A DNA stretch of 64,000 nucleotides, taken from a virus. The stretch lies in IMG/VR virus record IMGVR_UViG_3300021479_000014, positions 16,610 to 80,609 of that record; one strand, written 5' to 3'. Below the pieces are notes generated by a model. That model worked only from the letters and a program-made list of their open reading frames with translations, was not told the DNA's origin and searched no databases. The position numbers and the translations under genes are program-made. Below are positions 15,724-23,769 of the stretch, one piece after another (positions within the stretch are counted from its first letter, which is position 1; each line of letters opens with the position of its first letter).

Positions 15724-16610
15724 AACGGTTCTCCTAATAGGCCGAAATTACGTGCAAAGTTACACGTATGGCTTGGCAGTATTGCCTAAAAGGTGAGCCG
15801 TCCATAGGCGATTTACGATGTCAAACAGCACATTGGTCTAGCCCTATTATAGCACGTTTTCTAATGTGAAGCAAACCCACATTAAATAGTGGCGCATCAA
15901 GTCATCTATCACCATTATCAATAGCTGATGATATTTGACAATTGAACATGGCAAATCTGTGTATGAATTCTGAACCGCCAAAGTGCGGCAAAAATAGGGC
16001 TTGCCTTCCTTCGCGATTTCGGCTAGACTACCCTCTAGCCCGCTATAGGCGCGGGCGAAGACGATCTGATCTGACTTCTACTGCGGTTACACTTGACATT
16101 CCGCCGAAAGCGGTCTCTGCGGTTTTTGACAGATCCTACGACCCGCTGTTTGACATTCGAGGATTGCTTTATGCCGGCTGGGCTCGTCCGTGTTCGGGGC
16201 TGATTACGCATGTCTGAAGACATGCGGAGAATCAACAGGAGCGGTAAAAGGATCACTCGTAGAATAGCGCAAGTATCACGGGGTTGCGAAGAACAACGCT
16301 CTGATACGAAAGGCAAGCGCATGACAAGTTGCCTGAGGATGTTTGACCAGCCTTAGATGCAGGAAAACAGATTTGACGAACTCATGTAACACCCTGTTGA
16401 GTCCAAAAAGGCAAGAGACAGTGTTTTGAGGGTGCAAACTGGACGGGAAAAGAAACCGTACGTGGCGAGCAAGGGAACATCCGAAACCCAGACATTGTGC
16501 GATAGTGTCTGGTGACCCAAAAAATCAAAGACAGCAATACAGAGCACAGCGGGATGAAATAATCCTGCTGTGTTCAATAGTGCTGTCAGCACTAGAAAGG
16601 AGAAATCAAA
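15724..16610. other. Gene-poor, hairpin-rich region, possible structured RNA
   Basis: 887 bases with no gene I can support; the frame at 15942-16217 gives no recognisable protein. Hairpins: GGCTAGA/TCTAGCC at 16021-16040 overlaps GCCCGC/GCGGGC at 16038-16056, so the two exclude each other; GCATGTC/GACATGC with TGAA loop at 16208-16225; CCAGACA/TGTCTGG at 16488-16512; an 11-bp near-perfect stem at 16545-16572; TAGTGCT/AGCACTA at 16578-16594. Middle part is more GC-rich than flanking genes. A leader or noncoding RNA is possible. Confidence 0.45.
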
Positions 16611-17045
16611 ATGTCTTATAGAAGTAAAAAGATTCAAAAAGAAAAGCATGAATCTTATTCTGCATCATTGCGACAAATAGTTCTCTCAACAACAAGAGAA
16701 CGTCTACCACAACAAGACGGATATGTTGTGGCTCAAACGCCAAGAAAGAAGCGTTCTAAGTGGCGTATCGTAATTGATCCTGAAAATAGCAAGAAAACGC
16801 GAAAAGTTTCAGGATTCAGAATTAAAACATCAATTAAAGATCCAACTGTCAATCGTTATAGAGAAAACGATCAGAATTTAGGATATATCAACAAGAAGAA
16901 GTATTATGGGAGGTTTACGACTAATCCAAAGACCAAAGGGCGCGTCTTAGCTGTTATTCAGCAACCAGCGCAAGCAGCGTCTCAAGAGTCAGAATATATG
17001 CAGATCGAAGGAATAGTCATCGAAGGCGAGTATACTGAGGAGTAA
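16611..17045 (+). CDS. Basic hypothetical protein
   Basis: 144 residues with AAAGGAG upstream of ATG 16611. Strongly basic (MSYRSKKIQKEKHE..., KKRSKWRIVIDPENSKKTRK), ending in an acidic stretch EGEYTEE. No recognised fold. First gene of the long plus-strand operon after the structured region. Confidence 0.65.
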   Translation: MSYRSKKIQKEKHESYSASLRQIVLSTTRERLPQQDGYVVAQTPRKKRSKWRIVIDPENSKKTRKVSGFRIKTSIKDPTVNRYRENDQNLGYINKKKYYGRFTTNPKTKGRVLAVIQQPAQAASQESEYMQIEGIVIEGEYTEE

Positions 17046-17050
17046 GTACA

Positions 17051-17206
17051 ATGCGTGTCAAACACTTCGTGCATTCTAATCAACCAGAACAGAAGCGCAC
17101 CAGAATAGAGATTGAACTGCGAATGATGAATAATCGCAGAAAGAAAAGAGGACCAATAACACTAAAGCAACTAAACTTCATAAACAAACAACCACAGGAG
17201 AAGTAA
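17051..17206 (+). CDS. 51-residue basic peptide
   Basis: ATG 17051 to TAA 17206. Arg/Lys-rich centre (LRMMNNRRKKRGPIT). No clear ribosome binding site of its own, so it may depend on read-through from the previous gene. Listed because it fills the space neatly before the next gene with its own AGGAG. Confidence 0.45.
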   Translation: MRVKHFVHSNQPEQKRTRIEIELRMMNNRRKKRGPITLKQLNFINKQPQEK

Positions 17207-17207
17207 A

Positions 17208-17540
17208 ATGGCCGTATATGCGTTTGGACACCCAGGACAATGGTGGGCTGATGTAATGGGTAAAAGATACCCTTGCGTTGGCGCAATGCGAATAAAGAAT
17301 GACCACTACCAACAAGCGTATTCTCTTAATAAAGAGAAGTCGTGGAACCTCATAGAGGAAATTGAGGAGCTTCAAAAGGTTATAGTCAGAGAGGAAATAC
17401 TGCAAGCTAATGGCATCTATAAAGTGATAGGATATGTTGGCTTATTTCATGTACTCAATTTTATAGTAACAATTACTGATACCCACAAGATCGTTGATTT
17501 CGATCTTGGTCCGAAAATTGTTACGATCAAAAACCGCTAA
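17208..17540 (+). CDS. Small hypothetical protein
   Basis: 110 residues with AGGAGAAG upstream. N-terminal GHPGQWWADVMGKRYPCVGA then charged helix and a beta-rich C-terminal half. No known motif seen. Confidence 0.65.
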   Translation: MAVYAFGHPGQWWADVMGKRYPCVGAMRIKNDHYQQAYSLNKEKSWNLIEEIEELQKVIVREEILQANGIYKVIGYVGLFHVLNFIVTITDTHKIVDFDLGPKIVTIKNR

Positions 17541-17555
17541 CCACAGGAGAGTAAA

Positions 17556-17801
17556 ATGGCAAACATAAGCATACCGGTGGAACTTATCGACAGCTTCAAC
17601 TACTTCCTCAATAAGGGAGCTGGCGATCACAAAGCGAAGCCAATGATAGACGAACTTGGAATGACTAAGATAAGAAAGATAATGAAATTAAGAACGTTCT
17701 TCAATAAGAACGAGCAATATGGATACAGAATTGTTGCTCATGGTCCAGACGATAAAGAAGAAACTGGAGATGATAGCTATTACGAATTCATATTTCCGTA
17801 A
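17556..17801 (+). CDS. Small hypothetical protein
   Basis: 81 residues with CAGGAGAG upstream. Mixed charge, helical, C-terminal half with aromatic pairs (YYEFIFP). Its stop codon is followed three bases later by the first hammerhead. Confidence 0.65.
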   Translation: MANISIPVELIDSFNYFLNKGAGDHKAKPMIDELGMTKIRKIMKLRTFFNKNEQYGYRIVAHGPDDKEETGDDSYYEFIFP

Positions 17802-17804
17802 ATA

Positions 17805-17861
17805 GATCGAAACAGCCAGTGCGATTGGCTGTCCTAGCGTTTGGCGCTAGCTGATGAGATC
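17805..17861 (+). ncRNA. Type II hammerhead ribozyme 1
   Basis: All core elements in type II order: stem II strand GATC (17805-17808), GAAA (17809-17812), stem III ACAGCCA/TGGCTGT (17812-17818 with 17826-17832), target GTC ending at 17833, stem I CTAGCG/CGCTAG (17834-17839 with 17845-17850), CTGATGA (17851-17857), stem II GATC (17858-17861). Predicted cut is between 17833 and 17834. Followed by AGTAAC, AGGAGA and the next ATG at 17880, so cleavage would free the downstream gene's leader. Confidence 0.9.
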
Positions 17862-17879
17862 AGTAACAGGAGAAGTAAA

Positions 17880-18299
17880 ATGAAGATAAATCTTAACATA
17901 CATATCATGTCGTGGATGTGTCGCGAACATGACATCATCGATCCAGATCTTATCCAACTAAAGAACAATCACGAACAAATGATTGTGGATATTTCAGAAA
18001 GGATATCAATAAGATTTGATTATCCTCTTTCACATTCTGTATTGCTCCAATTTGGTGGCAAGAAGCCGTGGAGATTATCAGATCTAATTGATGTTGTCTG
18101 CGCCGGATATGTGAAGATATATGACGAGGAAGATGAAACCAGAACGCTTCCAGCTAGTGCTCCGTTGGATTCGATTCTGGTCAATCGTCCTAAAACTGAC
18201 GGCAAGCACGGCATCTGGGGACACATCCTAAATGACTTGTATATTGAAGGAATATACAAAGGATCAGACGGTGTTTGGTTGCTACAAATGGGATCATAA
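17880..18299 (+). CDS. Hypothetical protein between hammerheads 1 and 2
   Basis: 139 residues from ATG 17880, which has AGGAGAAG upstream, beyond hammerhead 1. Predicted mixed alpha/beta with segment RFDYPLSHSVLLQFGGKKPWRLSDLIDVVCAG, and a C-terminal WGHILNDLYIEGIYK. Not recognised. Its stop is immediately followed by hammerhead 2, so its message would be cut on both sides. Confidence 0.7.
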   Translation: MKINLNIHIMSWMCREHDIIDPDLIQLKNNHEQMIVDISERISIRFDYPLSHSVLLQFGGKKPWRLSDLIDVVCAGYVKIYDEEDETRTLPASAPLDSILVNRPKTDGKHGIWGHILNDLYIEGIYKGSDGVWLLQMGS

Positions 18300-18360
18300 G
18301 ACCGAAAGGGTGGCGCCACAAGCGCCATTCTCCTAGCGTTAGGCGCTAGCTGACGAGGTC
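18300..18360 (+). ncRNA. Type II hammerhead ribozyme 2
   Basis: Stem II GACC (18300-18303) with GGTC (18357-18360); GAAA at 18304-18307; stem III of ten pairs including two G-T wobbles (18307-18316 with 18322-18331); cut predicted after C18332; stem I CTAGCG/CGCTAG (18333-18338 with 18344-18349); CTGACGA at 18350-18356. Starts the base after the stop codon of the preceding gene and is followed by AGTAAC and AGGAGA before ATG 18379. Covariation against copy 1 (GACC/GGTC for GATC/GATC) supports the fold. Confidence 0.92.
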
Positions 18361-18378
18361 AGTAACAGGAGAACTAAA

Positions 18379-18600
18379 ATGGTAAAAGCAGTATATTGGT
18401 ATGGACCAGATAAAACTGGTCACGACGACTTTGGTATGCCATACGGCGATTTTATGTTTGATGGCAAAACAAAGATGGGACCTTGGGCCTGCATGAGTAG
18501 CTATAGCTGGGAGAAACACGGCTGTGGCAAACTCGGAACTGGCTTTGGCCAGAAGTACAAGAGACAGGCTGATGGCCGTTGGCTTAAGGTGGAGGGTTAA
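18379..18600 (+). CDS. Small hypothetical protein
   Basis: 73 residues with AGGAGAAC upstream, just beyond hammerhead 2. Gly- and aromatic-rich (VYWYGPDKTGHDDFG, GPWACMSSYSW), probably beta. No family recognised. Confidence 0.65.
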   Translation: MVKAVYWYGPDKTGHDDFGMPYGDFMFDGKTKMGPWACMSSYSWEKHGCGKLGTGFGQKYKRQADGRWLKVEG

Positions 18601-18951
18601 ATGGCGCGCATCAGTGTAAGACGTGGATCTGAAGGTCCAGAACACGATCCGTATTCATATACGGAGATCACGTTCTACTTCACAGATTCTGAGCGATCAA
18701 AAGTCGTTTATCATAGAGGATTAGGTGAGTGGCTTAAATATGGTGGTCGAACATACGACGCTAGTGACAGTTGGTTACCATCGTCAATTGACTATCTATT
18801 TAAGCACATAACTGGACTCTCAGTTCGTAGAGCCGAAGAGATTCCAGAGATGCTGTTTGAGCGTTCCATGCGTAAATACACTAAAGCTGAGCGCTGGGCC
18901 ATCATGGAATGCATCGAAGCCGATGAGGCCATGCTCAGAAACTGCTATTGA
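18601..18951 (+). CDS. Hypothetical protein
   Basis: 116 residues starting directly after the previous stop, with GGTGGAGG as binding site. Contains EITFYFTDSERSKVVYHRGLGEWLKYGG followed by a helical C-terminal half ending in EADEAMLRNCY. No known motif. A terminator hairpin follows. Confidence 0.65.
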   Translation: MARISVRRGSEGPEHDPYSYTEITFYFTDSERSKVVYHRGLGEWLKYGGRTYDASDSWLPSSIDYLFKHITGLSVRRAEEIPEMLFERSMRKYTKAERWAIMECIEADEAMLRNCY

Positions 18952-18965
18952 AATAATTGAACTTT

Positions 18966-18991
18966 GGAGCGCAGCAATGCGCTCCGCTTTT
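18966..18991 (+). terminator. Terminator, first of two terminator-RBS cassettes
   Basis: GGAGCGCA/TGCGCTCC with GCAA loop (18966-18985) and GCTTTT. It is followed by TTTTAGGCAATTTTGCCA and GAGGAGAATAAAATG, which is shared with the cassette at 19976-20033. Confidence 0.75.
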
Positions 18992-19021
18992 AGGCAATTT
19001 TGCCAGACTGAGGAGAATAAA

Positions 19022-19321
19022 ATGAGGTACGTTGTTATCAATAGAGCATGTGATGGAACACATATTTCGTCACATGCTACGTTTGAGAAAGCACAAAAGC
19101 GTGTGGAAGAAATGGTTGGCAGAAGAGAAGGGCCATTCAAACTTAATCAACCCTATTGTTCTGATTGGGGTAACGTTCTCACAATCGAGGAGCGCCCAGG
19201 CAATTGGACTGCGAATACTGAGCGGCGCGTTTCCGAGGCTTTTGATGCTAACGAATGTGGTTTTGCAACAAAGGCTCAAATTAAATTGTTGCATGAAAAG
19301 GGTTGGCTGACAGGAGAGTAA
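19022..19321 (+). CDS. Small hypothetical protein
   Basis: 99 residues from ATG 19022 with TGAGGAGA upstream; longer in-frame starts lie in the terminator region. Mixed alpha/beta; a hydrophilic segment SHATFEKAQKRVEEMVGRREG is followed by a Trp-rich stretch. No recognised family. Confidence 0.65.
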   Translation: MRYVVINRACDGTHISSHATFEKAQKRVEEMVGRREGPFKLNQPYCSDWGNVLTIEERPGNWTANTERRVSEAFDANECGFATKAQIKLLHEKGWLTGE

Positions 19322-19516
19322 ATGACAGAAAATCAAGAGTTTAGTATTTGGATGTCAAGGGTAGAATTTTACCTTGAATCTATGGTAAAGAAGTCGTTGA
19401 CACTATTGAAGTCATATGACTATCGCGATGACTTCAATAAAGGTTTTCTACCAGAAGAAACAGCAACTCGTGTAATTCAAAGGAGCAGAAAATGGCAAAG
19501 AAAGACCCGTGGATAA
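19322..19516 (+). CDS. Small hypothetical protein
   Basis: 64 residues, starts on the base after the previous stop with CAGGAGAG inside the preceding gene. Helical, basic tail (QRSRKWQRKTRG) shared with the overlap of the next gene. Function unknown. Confidence 0.6.
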   Translation: MTENQEFSIWMSRVEFYLESMVKKSLTLLKSYDYRDDFNKGFLPEETATRVIQRSRKWQRKTRG

Positions 19517-19791
19517 TATGCCCTGTCTGTGAAGGAGAGGGAAAGACAGTCAATCCAAATATTGACGCGAATGGATTGACTGCGGAAGACTTCAATGAAG
19601 ACCCAGACTTCAGAGAAGACTATATGAGCGGCGTATATGACATTACGTGCGCTGCATGTGGAGGTCAACGCGTCATCAAGAAGCAACGCATGAAAGAGCT
19701 GGCGCGAAATGCCGAAAGTCGCCGTCTGGCTGCTCGTGAAGATGGCGATTATGAAGGCTATTGCGGCGCTGGTGATTGGAGATATGGATAA
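19492..19791 (+). CDS. Zinc-finger protein with DnaJ-like Cys motif
   Basis: 99 residues. N-terminal CPVCEGEG (residues 10-17) and later CAACGG (about 55-60) form a CxxCxGxG-type zinc module related to DnaJ central domains, like the gene at 7700. C-terminal half is helical and charged. Coupled to the following membrane protein through TAATG. Confidence 0.7.
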   Translation: MAKKDPWIICPVCEGEGKTVNPNIDANGLTAEDFNEDPDFREDYMSGVYDITCAACGGQRVIKKQRMKELARNAESRRLAAREDGDYEGYCGAGDWRYG

Positions 19792-19970
19792 TGCATATCC
19801 TCCTTACCATAATTGTTATCATTGTACTAGTGGTTGTTTTTAGCAACCTAAATCAACAAGGAGTGATAACAGCTTGGAAAGGTCCAAATAACAATCTTGG
19901 TTGTATACCATTATTGTTAGTCTTTATATTTACCATTTGGGCCTTATGCCAATTGCCTGTAATACATTGA
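19791..19970 (+). CDS. Two-span small membrane protein
   Basis: 59 residues from ATG 19791, which overlaps the previous TAA. First hydrophobic helix ILLTIIVIIVLVVVFS, a short polar loop with Gly/Pro, then CIPLLLVFIFTIWALCQL. Size and topology suit a holin-like or inhibitor peptide, but it is far from the lysis genes, so the role is open. Confidence 0.55.
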   Translation: MHILLTIIVIIVLVVVFSNLNQQGVITAWKGPNNNLGCIPLLLVFIFTIWALCQLPVIH

Positions 19971-19975
19971 ACTTA

Positions 19976-20001
19976 ATGGCAGGTGCGATCTGCCATCTTT
20001 T
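19976..20001 (+). terminator. Terminator, second terminator-RBS cassette
   Basis: ATGGCAG/CTGCCAT hairpin (19976-19996) and CTTTT, then the same TTTTAGGCAATTTTGCCA plus GGAGAATAAAATG as at 18966-19024. Confidence 0.7.
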
Positions 20002-20030
20002 AGGCAATTTTGCCAAACTAGGAGAATAAA

Positions 20031-20288
20031 ATGGATAATCCTACAGTAGTGGTAGAAATAGAAGTGGATGCCGTACAAGAGGCCATCCAAACAATCCGAA
20101 AGATCAATAGCAAGATTGCTTGGGTGCTGGAAAATAATCCGCCATACAAGCAGAAGGAGCTTGATGATCTGAAGTATCGCAACGCCAATCTTACACTGGT
20201 TGAGTTGCGCCTCACTAAAGCTCTGAGCGATAGGGCTTTGGCCAATCAAGCCAAGGGCAATGTCGTTAAGATGGGAGGCAAGAAATGA
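20031..20288 (+). CDS. Small coiled-coil protein
   Basis: 85 residues with AGGAGAATAA before ATG. Begins with beta segment VVVEIEVDAV and continues as a long amphipathic helix (YRNANLTLVELRLTKALSDRALAN). Function unknown. Coupled to the next gene. Confidence 0.6.
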   Translation: MDNPTVVVEIEVDAVQEAIQTIRKINSKIAWVLENNPPYKQKELDDLKYRNANLTLVELRLTKALSDRALANQAKGNVVKMGGKK

Positions 20289-20530
20289 GAAAGGCTCTAT
20301 TGGCAGAATATAAAGTCAAGCCAAATGGCACAAAACTCCTTGACGATTTCAGAGGAGACAGAATTTATGGTAATTGTTATATTATCATAAAGGCTGGCGT
20401 AGAAATCTACGAGGTTATTACCTCAACGTTGGGTGATTGGTGTAACTGCCCAGCCGGACAACATGAGAAGAAATGCAAGCATCTATCTATGGTGTATGAT
20501 TTCAAAGAGAAGGAAGAAAAGGTCATATGA
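20285..20530 (+). CDS. Small SWIM-type zinc-finger protein
   Basis: 81 residues. The motif WCNCPAGQHEKKCKHLSMV (about residues 53-71) has the CxC-x(n)-CxH signature of SWIM zinc fingers, which bind DNA or protein in helicases and Sws1-like recombination factors. The whole protein is little more than this module. A second, diverged SWIM protein is at 26508. Start overlaps the previous stop. Confidence 0.75.
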   Translation: MRKALLAEYKVKPNGTKLLDDFRGDRIYGNCYIIIKAGVEIYEVITSTLGDWCNCPAGQHEKKCKHLSMVYDFKEKEEKVI

Positions 20531-20739
20531 AATACAATGCGACGTGTACGCTTCAAGCAGTACATATCAAAACTGGCAAAGTGATAGATATTTGTCAGTT
20601 TGATTCTTCTCCTCTTGAGATAGAAGCATCTTCACAAGAAGACGCAGACGAAAAATGGTCCAGACGCTGCCTCATCGAGGCAATGTGCTCTGGTTCTGAT
20701 ATAGCCAGAAAAGAATACAAGCAAGGGAAATGGAAATGA
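20527..20739 (+). CDS. Small hypothetical protein
   Basis: 70 residues, ATG overlaps the SWIM gene's stop. N-terminal beta segment (ATCTLQAVHIKTGKVIDICQF), three Cys not in a standard pattern. No recognised family. Confidence 0.6.
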   Translation: MKYNATCTLQAVHIKTGKVIDICQFDSSPLEIEASSQEDADEKWSRRCLIEAMCSGSDIARKEYKQGKWK

Positions 20740-20984
20740 ATAAACAAGACAAAGCCAGGTATCCTTTTATACGTGCCTGGGGCTACCAACTTGGTTCTTT
20801 TCAATATTATATCGAGAGTGAAATTGAAAGAGCCATTCGAGAAAATGCTCCTGAGCGTGCCATTTATAAAAGTGGTGCAGGAGGGTGGCGAACTATAGAT
20901 GACTGCAAGGATGAAGCAGTCAAACAACAGTGTATTGATTGGGTAGAAGCACATAAGAACGATCAATACGTTTCTGACGAATAA
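20736..20984 (+). CDS. Small hypothetical protein before hammerhead 3
   Basis: 82 residues from ATG 20736, preferred over ATG 20730 because the AAGGGA site is seven bases upstream and the ATGA overlap with the previous stop is the pattern here. Contains YPFIRAWGYQLG and an amphipathic C-terminal helix. Its TAA is followed at once by hammerhead 3. Confidence 0.6.
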   Translation: MNKQDKARYPFIRAWGYQLGSFQYYIESEIERAIRENAPERAIYKSGAGGWRTIDDCKDEAVKQQCIDWVEAHKNDQYVSDE

Positions 20985-21045
20985 GACCGAAACTGGCCGC
21001 AGTGATGCGCCCAGTCGTTGCGTAATGCGCAGCCTGACGATGGTC
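20985..21045 (+). ncRNA. Type II hammerhead ribozyme 3 (diverged)
   Basis: GACC (20985-20988), GAAA (20989-20992), stem III ACTGG/CCAGT (20992-20996 with 21011-21015) extended by a C-C mismatch and CGCA/TGCG with a GTGA tetraloop, cut predicted after C21016, stem I GTTGCG/CGCAGC (21017-21022 with 21028-21033), CTGACGA (21034-21040), one extra T (21041), stem II GGTC (21042-21045). AGTAAC follows, as in the other copies. The extra T at the core may lower activity. Confidence 0.8.
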
Positions 21046-21065
21046 AGTAACCCAAGGAGATGTAA

Positions 21066-21209
21066 ATGGGCGATCCAGAAGAGCATAAAGACGAAGAGTT
21101 GACTGTAAAATCTGATGCTCCAAAGGAAGAAGGGCCAAAAACAGATCCAGAAGAGAAAGAGGCGGATCCAATTCGCCCAGGAGAAGGCGGACAACCTGAA
21201 GTAGCGTAA
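21066..21209 (+). CDS. 47-residue acidic disordered peptide
   Basis: ATG 21066 with AAGGAGAT upstream, after hammerhead 3. Nearly half Glu/Asp/Lys with Pro/Gly (MGDPEEHKDEELTVKS); likely unstructured. The terminator at 21218 follows. Confidence 0.55.
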   Translation: MGDPEEHKDEELTVKSDAPKEEGPKTDPEEKEADPIRPGEGGQPEVA

Positions 21210-21217
21210 TCAACTTG

Positions 21218-21251
21218 CCGCTCCCATTTTAGGGAGGATGGGAGCGGTTTT
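21218..21251 (+). terminator. Terminator
   Basis: CCGCTCCCA (21218-21226) pairs with TGGGAGCGG (21239-21247), then TTTT. Twelve-nt loop. Followed by AGGGATGGAAAATG at the next gene. Confidence 0.75.
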
Positions 21252-21266
21252 AACTAGGGATGGAAA

Positions 21267-21476
21267 ATGATAACCATAAAAGAAATCACTTCTATGAAAG
21301 AGTTTGCTATCATAAGAAGTGCTTTGGAACTATATGTCGCTACTCTGAGTGAAGAGTATGACAGTAAGCAAACACGCCTCAAACTTAAAAAACTTGAGGA
21401 AGCCCAAAAATGTCTGAAAGACTTCAAACAACTAGGAGAACAAAATGGCAAACTTCAAAAGGCTACCGTCACTTAA
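21267..21476 (+). CDS. Small coiled-coil protein
   Basis: 69 residues with AGGGATGG upstream of the ATG. Charged amphipathic helices with heptad-like spacing (LKLKKLEEAQKCLKDFKQLGEQ). Overlaps the next gene's start. Function unknown. Confidence 0.55.
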   Translation: MITIKEITSMKEFAIIRSALELYVATLSEEYDSKQTRLKLKKLEEAQKCLKDFKQLGEQNGKLQKATVT

Positions 21477-21714
21477 ACCCTGCCATTGCGGCAGCGGTTT
21501 GGAAAGAGAAGCGCGTTATGATGCGCGTGGAATCTTCCTCACATATGTCTGCGAGAAGTGTGTGGAAGAGAAACTGGGTAAATTTCGCCCGGAAGTTCTA
21601 ACTGATCCCAATTATGATCTTATGGGAGAAGAGTTAGACGATGATGGTGATCTTGCAGATCCTGATATTCATCGCGATCTGCCGGATTTTGAAGATCCGG
21701 ATGTTCTCAGATGA
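21445..21714 (+). CDS. SEC-C-like zinc-binding protein
   Basis: 89 residues. PCHCGSGLERE (about residues 12-23) resembles the SEC-C motif (CxCGSGxK) and is followed by CEKC; the C-terminal half is very acidic (LMGEELDDDGDLADPD). A zinc-binding module for protein or nucleic-acid contact. Start lies inside the previous gene, AGGAG upstream. Its last bases overlap the next start. Confidence 0.7.
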   Translation: MANFKRLPSLKPCHCGSGLEREARYDARGIFLTYVCEKCVEEKLGKFRPEVLTDPNYDLMGEELDDDGDLADPDIHRDLPDFEDPDVLR

Positions 21715-22070
21715 AAACTCTTATCACGATGGGTGCGCTGCTAATTTCAGGCAGCGCACAGGCTATGTGTGATTTTGAACATCATTGCTATCAAGATACA
21801 CCACCGCCGCAAGTATATCATAATCTAAACGGAGACGTGATACCGCCTCCGCCTCCTCAATATCCTAAGCCTAATCAAATTATAGTTCATGCACCAACAC
21901 CACAAGTGACAATAAATGCGAATGTTTGTAAGTTGGTAAGAATTAGAGTAGCGCCAGAAGCTCCACAAACAATAGTTGAAATCTGCACAATGTCTGATGA
22001 TGAAGAAAGAATGTATCGTCAGAGACAGAGTCAACTACAAGCATCTATTCCACAATTTCAACCCTATTAA
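21711..22070 (+). CDS. Secreted Pro-rich protein with signal peptide
   Basis: 119 residues. MKTLITMGALLISGSAQAMC has a basic start, hydrophobic core and AQA-type cleavage site (cut about residue 18). The mature protein is Pro-rich (PPPQVYHNLN...VIPPPPPQYP) with a Cys after cleavage but no lipobox spacing that convinces me, then a charged helical C-terminus. Exported by the phage into the host envelope, possibly for superinfection exclusion or lysis control; function not recognised. Confidence 0.6.
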   Translation: MKTLITMGALLISGSAQAMCDFEHHCYQDTPPPQVYHNLNGDVIPPPPPQYPKPNQIIVHAPTPQVTINANVCKLVRIRVAPEAPQTIVEICTMSDDEERMYRQRQSQLQASIPQFQPY

Positions 22071-22074
22071 GGAA

Positions 22075-22120
22075 TCACCTGGTCTTTTCAACAGCCCCCC
22101 GGTTGTTATAGGCCAGGTGA
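22075..22120 (+). other. Hairpin in leader of next gene
   Basis: TCACCTGG (22075-22082) pairs with CCAGGTGA (22113-22120); an inner CAAC/GTTG stem has a C-rich loop. The terminator follows it. Possibly a regulatory RNA element. Confidence 0.4.
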
Positions 22121-22127
22121 AGACTTG

Positions 22128-22164
22128 CCGCCAGGATTTGTACTGCGTACCTGGCGGATTTTTT
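22128..22164 (+). terminator. Terminator
   Basis: CCGCCAGG (22128-22135) pairs with CCTGGCGG (22150-22157), then ATTTTTT. Precedes the next gene's GGAGG. Confidence 0.85.
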
Positions 22165-22183
22165 GTCAATTTAGGAGGCAGTA

Positions 22184-23285: not shown

Positions 23286-23618
23286 ATGAATAAGGCAGAA
23301 CTCAAGGTAGTTGCTGATGCCAAGGGAGAAATTGAAGATGCAAAGGAGAAAGTTTCCAATTTTATCGATGAGATCATAACAAAGACAATAGATCCAATGA
23401 TAGAAACCATTGGAAATCTGCAAGATGAGCTGCAAGCGCAGTTTGACGATCTTTCTGAGAAGACCCAGGAAGGTGATAAGGGGACAAAACTCACAGAAGA
23501 AATAGACGCTCTTGGTGAGCTCAAAGATGAACTCGATACGTTCAAGACAGAGTTTGATGATACAGCGTTCGACGATATCATCGCTAAGTTCGATGATGTA
23601 CCAGGACTGACTGCATAG
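23286..23618 (+). CDS. Acidic coiled-coil protein
   Basis: 110 residues with GGAGACAG upstream. Heptad-like helices throughout (ELKVVADAKGEIEDAK, DELQAQFDDLSEK, ELKDELDTFKTEFDD) with strong net negative charge. Might be a scaffold or DNA mimic; nothing specific can be said. Followed by the structured region at 23622. Confidence 0.6.
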   Translation: MNKAELKVVADAKGEIEDAKEKVSNFIDEIITKTIDPMIETIGNLQDELQAQFDDLSEKTQEGDKGTKLTEEIDALGELKDELDTFKTEFDDTAFDDIIAKFDDVPGLTA

Positions 23619-23621
23619 TTT

Positions 23622-23704
23622 TGCTTGACGTACCAGCCTTAAGGCTACCGCAAACCCCCGACAGGAACTGGCGTTGATATAGCACAGTCAACGAAAGTCA
23701 AGCA
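23622..23704 (+). other. Possible structured RNA closed by an 8-bp stem
   Basis: TGCTTGAC (23622-23629) pairs exactly with GTCAAGCA (23697-23704). Inside are AGCC/GGCT with TTAA loop, CCAG/CTGG and GTTGA/TCAAC pairs. The hammerhead core CTGANGA is absent, so it is not a fourth ribozyme. Role unknown. Confidence 0.4.
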
Positions 23705-23709
23705 ATGGG

Positions 23710-23755
23710 TGGGAGGAGGTATTTTGAATGGCATCCTAGCCTCCTCCCATTTCTT
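23710..23755 (+). terminator. Terminator
   Basis: Ten-bp stem TGGGAGGAGG (23710-23719) with CCTCCTCCCA (23740-23749), 20-nt loop, T-rich end. Next gene starts 20 bases on. Confidence 0.65.
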
Positions 23756-23769
23756 ATATGGAGAGAAAA

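What the first reader, a model, noticed from the sequence alone, without database searches (positions are those of the whole stretch)
17805..21045. Three type II hammerhead ribozymes at gene junctions of one operon
At 17805-17861, 18300-18360 and 20985-21045 the order is stem II strand, GAAA, stem III, GTC or CTC cut site, stem I, CTGANGA, stem II strand. All three cores are complete, stems differ in sequence but pair (GATC/GATC against GACC/GGTC), and all are followed by AGTAAC then a ribosome binding site. Each starts 0-3 nt after a stop codon, so self-cleavage would cut the polycistronic RNA at each gene boundary and leave a 5'-OH leader on the next message. Type II hammerheads are known in phage and bacterial sequence in general; the regular placement as intergenic processing signals in one operon is what seems new. 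Copy 3 has one extra T after the core.
Basis: partly seen in the sequence, partly recalled or inferred. Interest (0 to 1): 0.92.

Follow-up and report, generated by a model that had tools for sequence, protein, structure and literature searches.

The report
Phage ribozymes that refold after cutting
Three small self-cutting RNAs sit between genes of an uncultured bacterial virus and probably chop its long message into single-gene pieces; many such viruses share them, and the neighbouring sequence looks built to refold the used ribozyme into a hairpin at the start of the next message.

Summary
Observation confirmed. All three copies are complete type II hammerheads at the stated places. A covariance model trained on 45 hammerheads from loci outside this phage group finds these three and nothing else in the window (E 1.3e-20 to 3.6e-14), although Rfam finds none.

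What I did not find in print is the leader that follows. In this Rfam-missed subclass the bases just downstream, N'UCAG, complement the catalytic CUGAN. In ribozymes newly fetched by two scans that left both N free, core position 7 pairs with N' in 150 of 151 (70 of 70 representatives; 114.9 and 55.6 expected). The two folds exclude each other. Cleavage should leave the next mRNA with a 5'-OH and two adjacent hairpins, stem I and the refolded core, ahead of a free ribosome site.

210 of 278 ribozymes start -2 to +3 nt from the upstream stop codon (median 1); 86 terminator-like hairpins in the same loci have a median of 17. Arrays reach 12 scan hits in 7.5 kb. No cleavage was tested. New variant of a known kind.

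The parts
17805..17861 (+). hammerhead copy 1: stem II GATC 17805-17808, GAA 17809-17811, stem III 17812-17832, C17 at 17833 (cut after it, 5'-OH at 17834), stem I 17834-17850, CUGAUGA 17851-17857, stem II GATC 17858-17861
   Evidence: model R1 60.1 bits, E 1.3e-20
18300..18360 (+). hammerhead copy 2: stem II GACC 18300-18303, GAA, stem III 18307-18331, C17 at 18332 (5'-OH at 18333), stem I 18333-18349, CUGACGA 18350-18356, stem II GGTC 18357-18360
   Evidence: model R1 47.4 bits, E 1.2e-15
20985..21045 (+). hammerhead copy 3: stem II GACC 20985-20988, GAA, stem III 20992-21015 (with one C-C mismatch), C17 at 21016 (5'-OH at 21017), stem I 21017-21033, CUGACGA 21034-21040, extra U 21041, stem II GGTC 21042-21045
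   Evidence: model R1 43.6 bits, E 3.6e-14
17851..17863 (+). competing hairpin of copy 1: CUGAU 17851-17855 with AUCAG 17859-17863; excludes the active core and stem II
   Evidence: minimum-energy fold; covariation in other phages
18350..18362 (+). competing hairpin of copy 2: CUGAC 18350-18354 with GUCAG 18358-18362
21034..21047 (+). competing hairpin of copy 3: CUGAC 21034-21038 with GUCAG 21043-21047
17862..17882 (+). tail AGTAAC, then AGGAG and the start codon ATG 17880 (copy 1); same layout after copy 2 (ATG 18379) and copy 3 (ATG 21066)
   Evidence: sequence
17556..17801 (+). gene upstream of copy 1 (81 aa, no PHROG match)
   Evidence: conserved in L124
17880..18299 (+). gene between copies 1 and 2 (139 aa, no PHROG match)
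   Evidence: homologues in L124, L132, L127, L140, L139, L137
18379..18600 (+). gene downstream of copy 2 (73 aa, phrog_29767, unknown function)
20730..20984 (+). gene upstream of copy 3 (84 aa, no PHROG match)
21066..21209 (+). gene downstream of copy 3 (47 aa)
   Evidence: homologues in L124, L045, L203, L046, each with a hammerhead just upstream
18957..19008 (+). terminator-like element (hairpin, CTTTT, small hairpin) at a junction that carries a hammerhead in L130 and L134
19971..20018 (+). second terminator-like element; its hairpin TGGCAGGTGCGATCTGCCA (19977-19995) is identical to stem III of hammerheads in L138 and L139

Best explanation
The three elements are self-cleaving type II hammerhead ribozymes that punctuate a polycistronic phage transcript. 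While stem II pairs, each cuts after C17. The upstream message then ends in the stem III hairpin plus one base with a 2',3'-cyclic phosphate. The 4-bp stem II comes apart, and the catalytic CUGAN pairs with the N'UCAG just downstream. The downstream message therefore starts with a 5'-OH at the first base of the stem I hairpin, directly followed by the refolded core hairpin, then a single-stranded leader with the ribosome site. The refolding makes the cut irreversible and gives the new 5' end a double hairpin, so one element finishes the 3' end of one gene and the 5' end of the next. Shown here: sequence, structure, conservation, placement, and covariation of core position 7 with N'. Inferred: activity, order of events, and the effect on mRNA stability (a 5'-OH and a 5'-terminal hairpin hinder 5'-end-dependent decay by RNase E and RppH; recalled).
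For: Model R1 finds all three. Loci newly fetched by the two scans with both N free: position 7 pairs with N' in 150 of 151 unique ribozymes (114.9 expected if independent) and 70 of 70 representatives (55.6); all loci together 175 of 176 and 87 of 87, none of 10,000 permutations reaching this. 12 representatives in which position 7 cannot pair with the second base of stem II still pair with N' (12 of 12). Where UCAG overlaps stem II (GGTC+AG), position 7 is C in 60 and T in 28; without AG it is C in 2, T in 12, G in 2 (Fisher p = 4e-5). In 183 representatives from loci not chosen for their tail, the exact complement of CUGAN lies within 20 nt after the core in 70, against 3.3 in shuffled tails. 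The 3' product folds into the hairpin with P of at least 0.5 in 110 of 120 representatives that have UCAG, and in all three window copies the minimum-energy fold of the product is stem I, core hairpin, open ribosome site. Hairpin modules are shared with terminator-like elements, and one junction has a terminator-like element in the window and L127 but a hammerhead in L130 and L134, as expected if stem III serves as a 3'-end hairpin. Published arrays of this layout cleave in vitro, one of them in E. coli.
Against: No cleavage or RNA-end data for this phage. Rfam's model misses all three. Nearest-neighbour energies put the competing fold level with or slightly below the active one (E_active minus minimum: median 0.3 kcal/mol over 205 representatives), so it could as well hinder cleavage. 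83 of 183 tail-unbiased representatives lack UCAG within 16 nt, so it is not essential to all. In control (b), pairing position 7 with stem II base 2 (slide -3) gives nearly the same covariation score (0.206 against 0.208), though only 57.9% of cells pair. Copy 3 has an extra U next to the core.
Confidence: 0.58

Rival explanations
1. The UCAG hairpin is mainly a switch before cleavage: it holds the core in an inactive fold, and cleavage depends on something that tips the balance, such as a ribosome on the upstream stop codon, temperature or a protein. The stop codon abuts or overlaps the 5' strand of stem II, so a terminating ribosome would cover that strand and favour the inactive fold; the operon would be cut only when upstream translation pauses or ends.
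For: Near-equal energies of the two folds. Start of the ribozyme at -2 to +3 nt from the stop codon in 210 of 278 (median 1) against 5 of 86 terminator-like hairpins (median 17). Stem II with four G/C goes with a C-G competitor pair (17 of 22) more than stem II with three G/C (7 of 54), as if the folds were balanced.
Against: Compact phage genomes could explain the stop-codon adjacency. The stem strength link is confounded with G+C content of the locus (rho 0.38 and 0.29) and vanished in the coarser comparison of three or more against fewer G/C (p = 0.49). No ligand site or regulator is visible.
Confidence: 0.25
2. The elements are ordinary type II hammerheads and UCAG is part of the active fold, for example a tertiary contact between the tail and loop I as in the published pseudoknot class.
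For: Published type II hammerheads use a Watson-Crick contact between loop I and the 3' tail (passages and section). The tail AGNAAC is common, and loop I is usually GUNNNGC or GUNNNUC.
Against: Loop I and tail are no more complementary than shuffled partners: 15 of 236 with 4 or more contiguous pairs against 19.6. A tail contact does not predict the match between position 7 and N'. A non-Watson-Crick contact cannot be excluded.
Confidence: 0.1
3. The ribozymes do not cut in the cell; they persist as hairpins that stabilise RNA or end transcription.
For: Some hairpins are shared with terminator-like elements; the minimum-energy folds of the whole elements lack stem II.
Against: Core bases and stem II are kept while stems change at orthologous junctions; relatives of the same architecture cleave.
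Confidence: 0.07

Closest known systems
Type II hammerhead ribozyme (Rfam RF02276; Perreault et al. 2011, PMC3088659)
   Same: Order of parts, core CUGANGA and GAAA, A15.1-U16.1, H17, closed stems I and III, open stem II; clusters around phage genes; proposed processing of long phage transcripts.
   Different: Stem II is 4 bp; stem I usually 17 nt; no Watson-Crick pseudoknot between loop I and tail detected; complement of the core follows. Rfam's model at its gathering score gives 14 hits in 31 array loci in which my scan has 146; one of the 14 is not among mine, and I matched coordinates only for L125.
Clustered hammerheads of Agrobacterium tumefaciens, Clostridium scindens and Azorhizobium (Perreault et al. 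2011, Fig. 3, figure not seen)
   Same: Several hammerheads flanking single genes in a polycistronic region; cleavage seen in vitro, and for A. tumefaciens also in E. coli.
   Different: Those are three small prophage cases; here 51 loci have three or more scan hits and 22 have five or more, up to 12. I could not compare their tails.
HHphage of haloviruses HF1 and HF2
   Same: Hammerhead just before the start codon of the first gene of a polycistronic transcript; mapped 5' end within three nt of the cut site.
   Different: Variant core, archaeal virus, single copy as described in the passage.

Membership tests
Type II hammerhead ribozyme | CUGANGA and GAA core with A15.1-U16.1 and H17 = C | tested here: met
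   All three copies
Type II hammerhead ribozyme | Three helices, stems I and III closed, stem II open | tested here: met
   The training alignment has paired changes in all three helices, but its members were chosen for pairing, so that count is partly circular
Type II hammerhead ribozyme | Score above the Rfam RF02276 gathering cut-off | tested here: not met
   0 of 3. The Rfam model fits a long stem I class with a tail pseudoknot; a model of the short-stem class hits all three
Type II hammerhead ribozyme | Watson-Crick pseudoknot between loop I and 3' tail (usual, not essential) | tested here: not met
   No excess over shuffled partners in 236 related ribozymes; for the window copies judged by eye only: GUUA-UAAC possible in copy 2, three pairs in copy 1, none seen in copy 3
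Type II hammerhead ribozyme | Self-cleavage at the predicted site | not testable with these tools
   Needs in vitro transcription or RNA ends from infected cells

The most novel reading that the evidence does not exclude
Phage gene junctions carry bistable ribozymes: a terminating ribosome on the stop codon that abuts stem II holds the RNA in the CUGAN/NUCAG fold, and its departure lets the hammerhead form and cut, so each gene's translation controls when it is severed from the next. After cutting, the same hairpin becomes the 5' end of the next message.
Probability: 0.22. Interest if true: 0.82.

Novelty: new variant of a known kind. Interest (0 to 1): 0.62.

Why it matters
[quoted passage not shown] The covariation between a catalytic-core base and the mRNA leader is a specific, testable clue: cutting is tied to a second fold that buries the used core at the new 5' end. 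If right, these phages cut and cap their own mRNAs without a nuclease, with a compact part that occurs at up to 12 places in 7.5 kb. It also shows that Rfam's model undercounts these ribozymes, and gives natural designs for self-cutting operons with stable pieces.

Tried and rejected
Chance: rejected by the reversed control (2 against 661), shuffles and the independent model. Loop I to tail pseudoknot: no excess. Complement of stem I in the tail: 9 observed, 9.25 in shuffled tails. Further or degenerate copies in the window: none with one core mismatch or up to E = 10. Isolated relatives: blastn of a window stretch and of four array loci against 50,697 phage records gave no match; TerL and DNA polymerase matches are all under 60% identity. 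PaP3 and Bcep176, named in a 2011 figure legend, gave no convincing type II ribozyme in my scan (one weak long hit in Bcep176). Genome scan: 5 stretches; my scan confirms a ribozyme in 2 of the 5 (L372, L373). Element C as an HDV-like ribozyme: considered from memory and dropped; no Rfam match up to E = 5.

Rows dropped: 9 of 205 representatives near locus ends; 10 of 342, and 54 of the remaining 332 without a usable stop codon; ribozymes with stem II under 4 bp or an inserted base in the position 7 tests. Representatives are clustered by shared 6-mers, which removes close copies but not deeper ancestry, which merges identical rows, leaves 19 distinct (9 UA, 8 CG, 2 UG).

Papers: PMC3088659, sections 6 and 11 (part 1 of 2) and passages; PMC10085705 and PMC6155905, passages; others only as listings. 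The statement that the core complement is not in print rests on these eight searches of open-access papers only; figures and supplements were not seen.
Full report
What was checked. The stretch 17401-21480 was read. Each copy has, in order, a 4-base strand of stem II, GAA, a hairpin closed by A-U (stem III), C, a 17-nt hairpin (stem I), CUGANGA, the other strand of stem II, and AGTAAC, then a ribosome site and an ATG. That is the type II order of the hammerhead. Rfam reports no hammerhead in the window at its gathering score nor up to E = 5 over 17000-22000. A model built from 45 ribozymes in loci outside the window's phage group finds the three copies and nothing else; the whole 80,609-base virus record has the same three.

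Surroundings. The record carries a T4-type terminase large subunit, a DNA polymerase of phrog_405, a helicase, a ligase and collagen-like tail fibres. The ribozymes lie in a run of small co-directional genes, most of unknown function. Fetched stretches of relatives (L139, L140/L137, L130/L148, L046, L203/L138, L045/L127, L132, and L124, which is identical at the protein level) keep ribozymes there. The junction before the 47-aa gene at 21066 has a hammerhead in L124, L045, L203 and L046 (4 of 4 with a homologue); in L046 and L203 stems I and III are of different sequence, yet pair. Downstream of the 139-aa gene, L124, L132, L127, L140 and L137 have one; L139 does not. Upstream of it, L124, L132 and L139 have one by scan, and L140 has one that the strict scan missed because of an imperfect stem III.

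How widespread. In them the structural scan finds 661 ribozymes (554 unique, 342 representatives), 2 in the reversed control. 410 loci have a hit, 117 two or more, 51 three or more, 22 five or more, and L508 has 12 in 7.5 kb, one of them with an unusually long span. These loci were chosen for hammerhead patterns, so the figures show that arrays exist, not how common they are. Some loci are pieces of one contig.

Placement. Of 332 representatives tested, 278 have the stop codon of a frame of at least 60 codons nearby; 210 of these 278 ribozymes start -2 to +3 nt from it, and in 78 the last base of a TAG is the first base of stem II. For 86 terminator-like hairpins in the same loci the median is 17 nt and 5 lie in that range. 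In an earlier set, 154 of 196 representatives had both an upstream stop and a downstream start with a ribosome site, against 13% of 1025 random places.

The competing hairpin. Folding the three elements gave not the hammerhead but a hairpin of CUGA with UCAG. That led to the test. In the first tail-unbiased set UCAG followed the core in 174 of 274 unique ribozymes. In some it overlaps stem II (GRUC+AG), as in the window; in others it lies one base beyond (N'UCAG). In the second form position 7 of the core, a free base in the hammerhead consensus, paired with N' in 24 of 24. I then scanned with both N free. In loci newly fetched by those scans, 150 of 151 unique ribozymes pair (87 UA, 61 CG, 2 UG, 1 CA; 114.9 expected) and 70 of 70 representatives (55.6 expected). 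All loci together: 175 of 176 and 87 of 87; none of 10,000 permutations came near (maxima 147 and 76). In the overlapping form position 7 follows stem II base 2 only when AG completes UCAG (Fisher p = 7.6e-9 with AG, 0.48 without). Against this: in the second form position 7 also goes with stem II base 2 (75 of 87 could pair), and the slide control that tests it gives nearly the same score; but in the 12 of 87 where that pair fails, the N' pair holds. Ancestry surely explains part of the association.

Reading. CUGAN cannot be in the catalytic core and in this hairpin at once. The hairpin needs nothing from the 5' fragment, starts exactly where stem I ends, and forms with probability of at least 0.5 in 110 of 120 predicted 3' products, leaving the ribosome site open. 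I therefore think it acts after the cut: it traps the product and, with stem I, closes the 5' end of the next message. Stem III would in turn finish the upstream message. In line with that, the hairpin TGGCAGGTGCGATCTGCCA is a terminator-like hairpin at window 19977-19995 and stem III of ribozymes in L138 and L139, an 18-nt piece of stem III of copy 2 recurs in such an element in L127 (random hairpins: 0.45 hits per pass), and one junction has the terminator-like element in the window and L127 but a ribozyme in L130 and L134. The alternative, a switch before the cut, fits the near-equal energies and the stop codon placement and is kept as the main rival.

Known or new. Type II hammerheads, their clustering around phage genes and the processing idea are in Perreault et al. 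2011 (sections read). I found no paper on a complement of the core in the leader (eight searches, open-access papers only). The Rfam type II model gives 14 hits in 31 array loci where my scan has 146. Filed as a subclass of type II hammerheads: core and architecture met, Rfam score not met, tail pseudoknot not met, activity untested.

Noticed in passing
window 23616-23760; also L139 9883-, L140 11645- and 12674-, L137, L148 7408-, L045 3378-, L568, L614, L124: A conserved structured element between genes: long helix (GCUUGAC/GUCAAGC and variants), CCAG/CUGG helix, third helix, then CGAAAGUC, followed in several relatives by a G-rich terminator-like hairpin. No Rfam match up to E = 5. Could be a riboswitch-like or other regulatory RNA.
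   Followed up: partly
window 22071-22183; also L045, L124, L137, L140, L148, L552: Another intergenic element: CACCUGG...CCCCCC...CCAGGUG, then a terminator-like GCCGCCAGG hairpin ahead of the next gene. Seen only in this phage group among 19 pattern stretches; the others looked like unrelated matches.
   Followed up: partly
L125 5300-10821 (- strand): Four Twister-P5 ribozymes interleaved with hammerheads (five by my scan, one more by Rfam only) on the same strand within about 5.5 kb: a mixed ribozyme array. L185 also has one Twister-P5 beside hammerheads. These were the only two of 31 array loci with a Twister-P5 at the gathering score.
   Followed up: partly
window 18957-19008 and 19971-20018: Terminator-like elements with the shared sequence CTTTTAGGCAATTTTGCC; in relatives the hairpin changes while this trailer is kept.
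   Followed up: partly
L371, L373, L374 among the genome-contig hits: Hits to the GACC...GGTCAG pattern in bacterial and one archaeal (Candidatus Baldrarchaeum) metagenome-assembled or genome contigs; only L372 and L373 were confirmed by the structural scan.
   Followed up: no
window 16356-16610: A 254-base gap between called genes just upstream, with several hairpins and a CCGAAACCCAGACA...UGUCUGG stretch resembling half a hammerhead; nature unknown.
   Followed up: no
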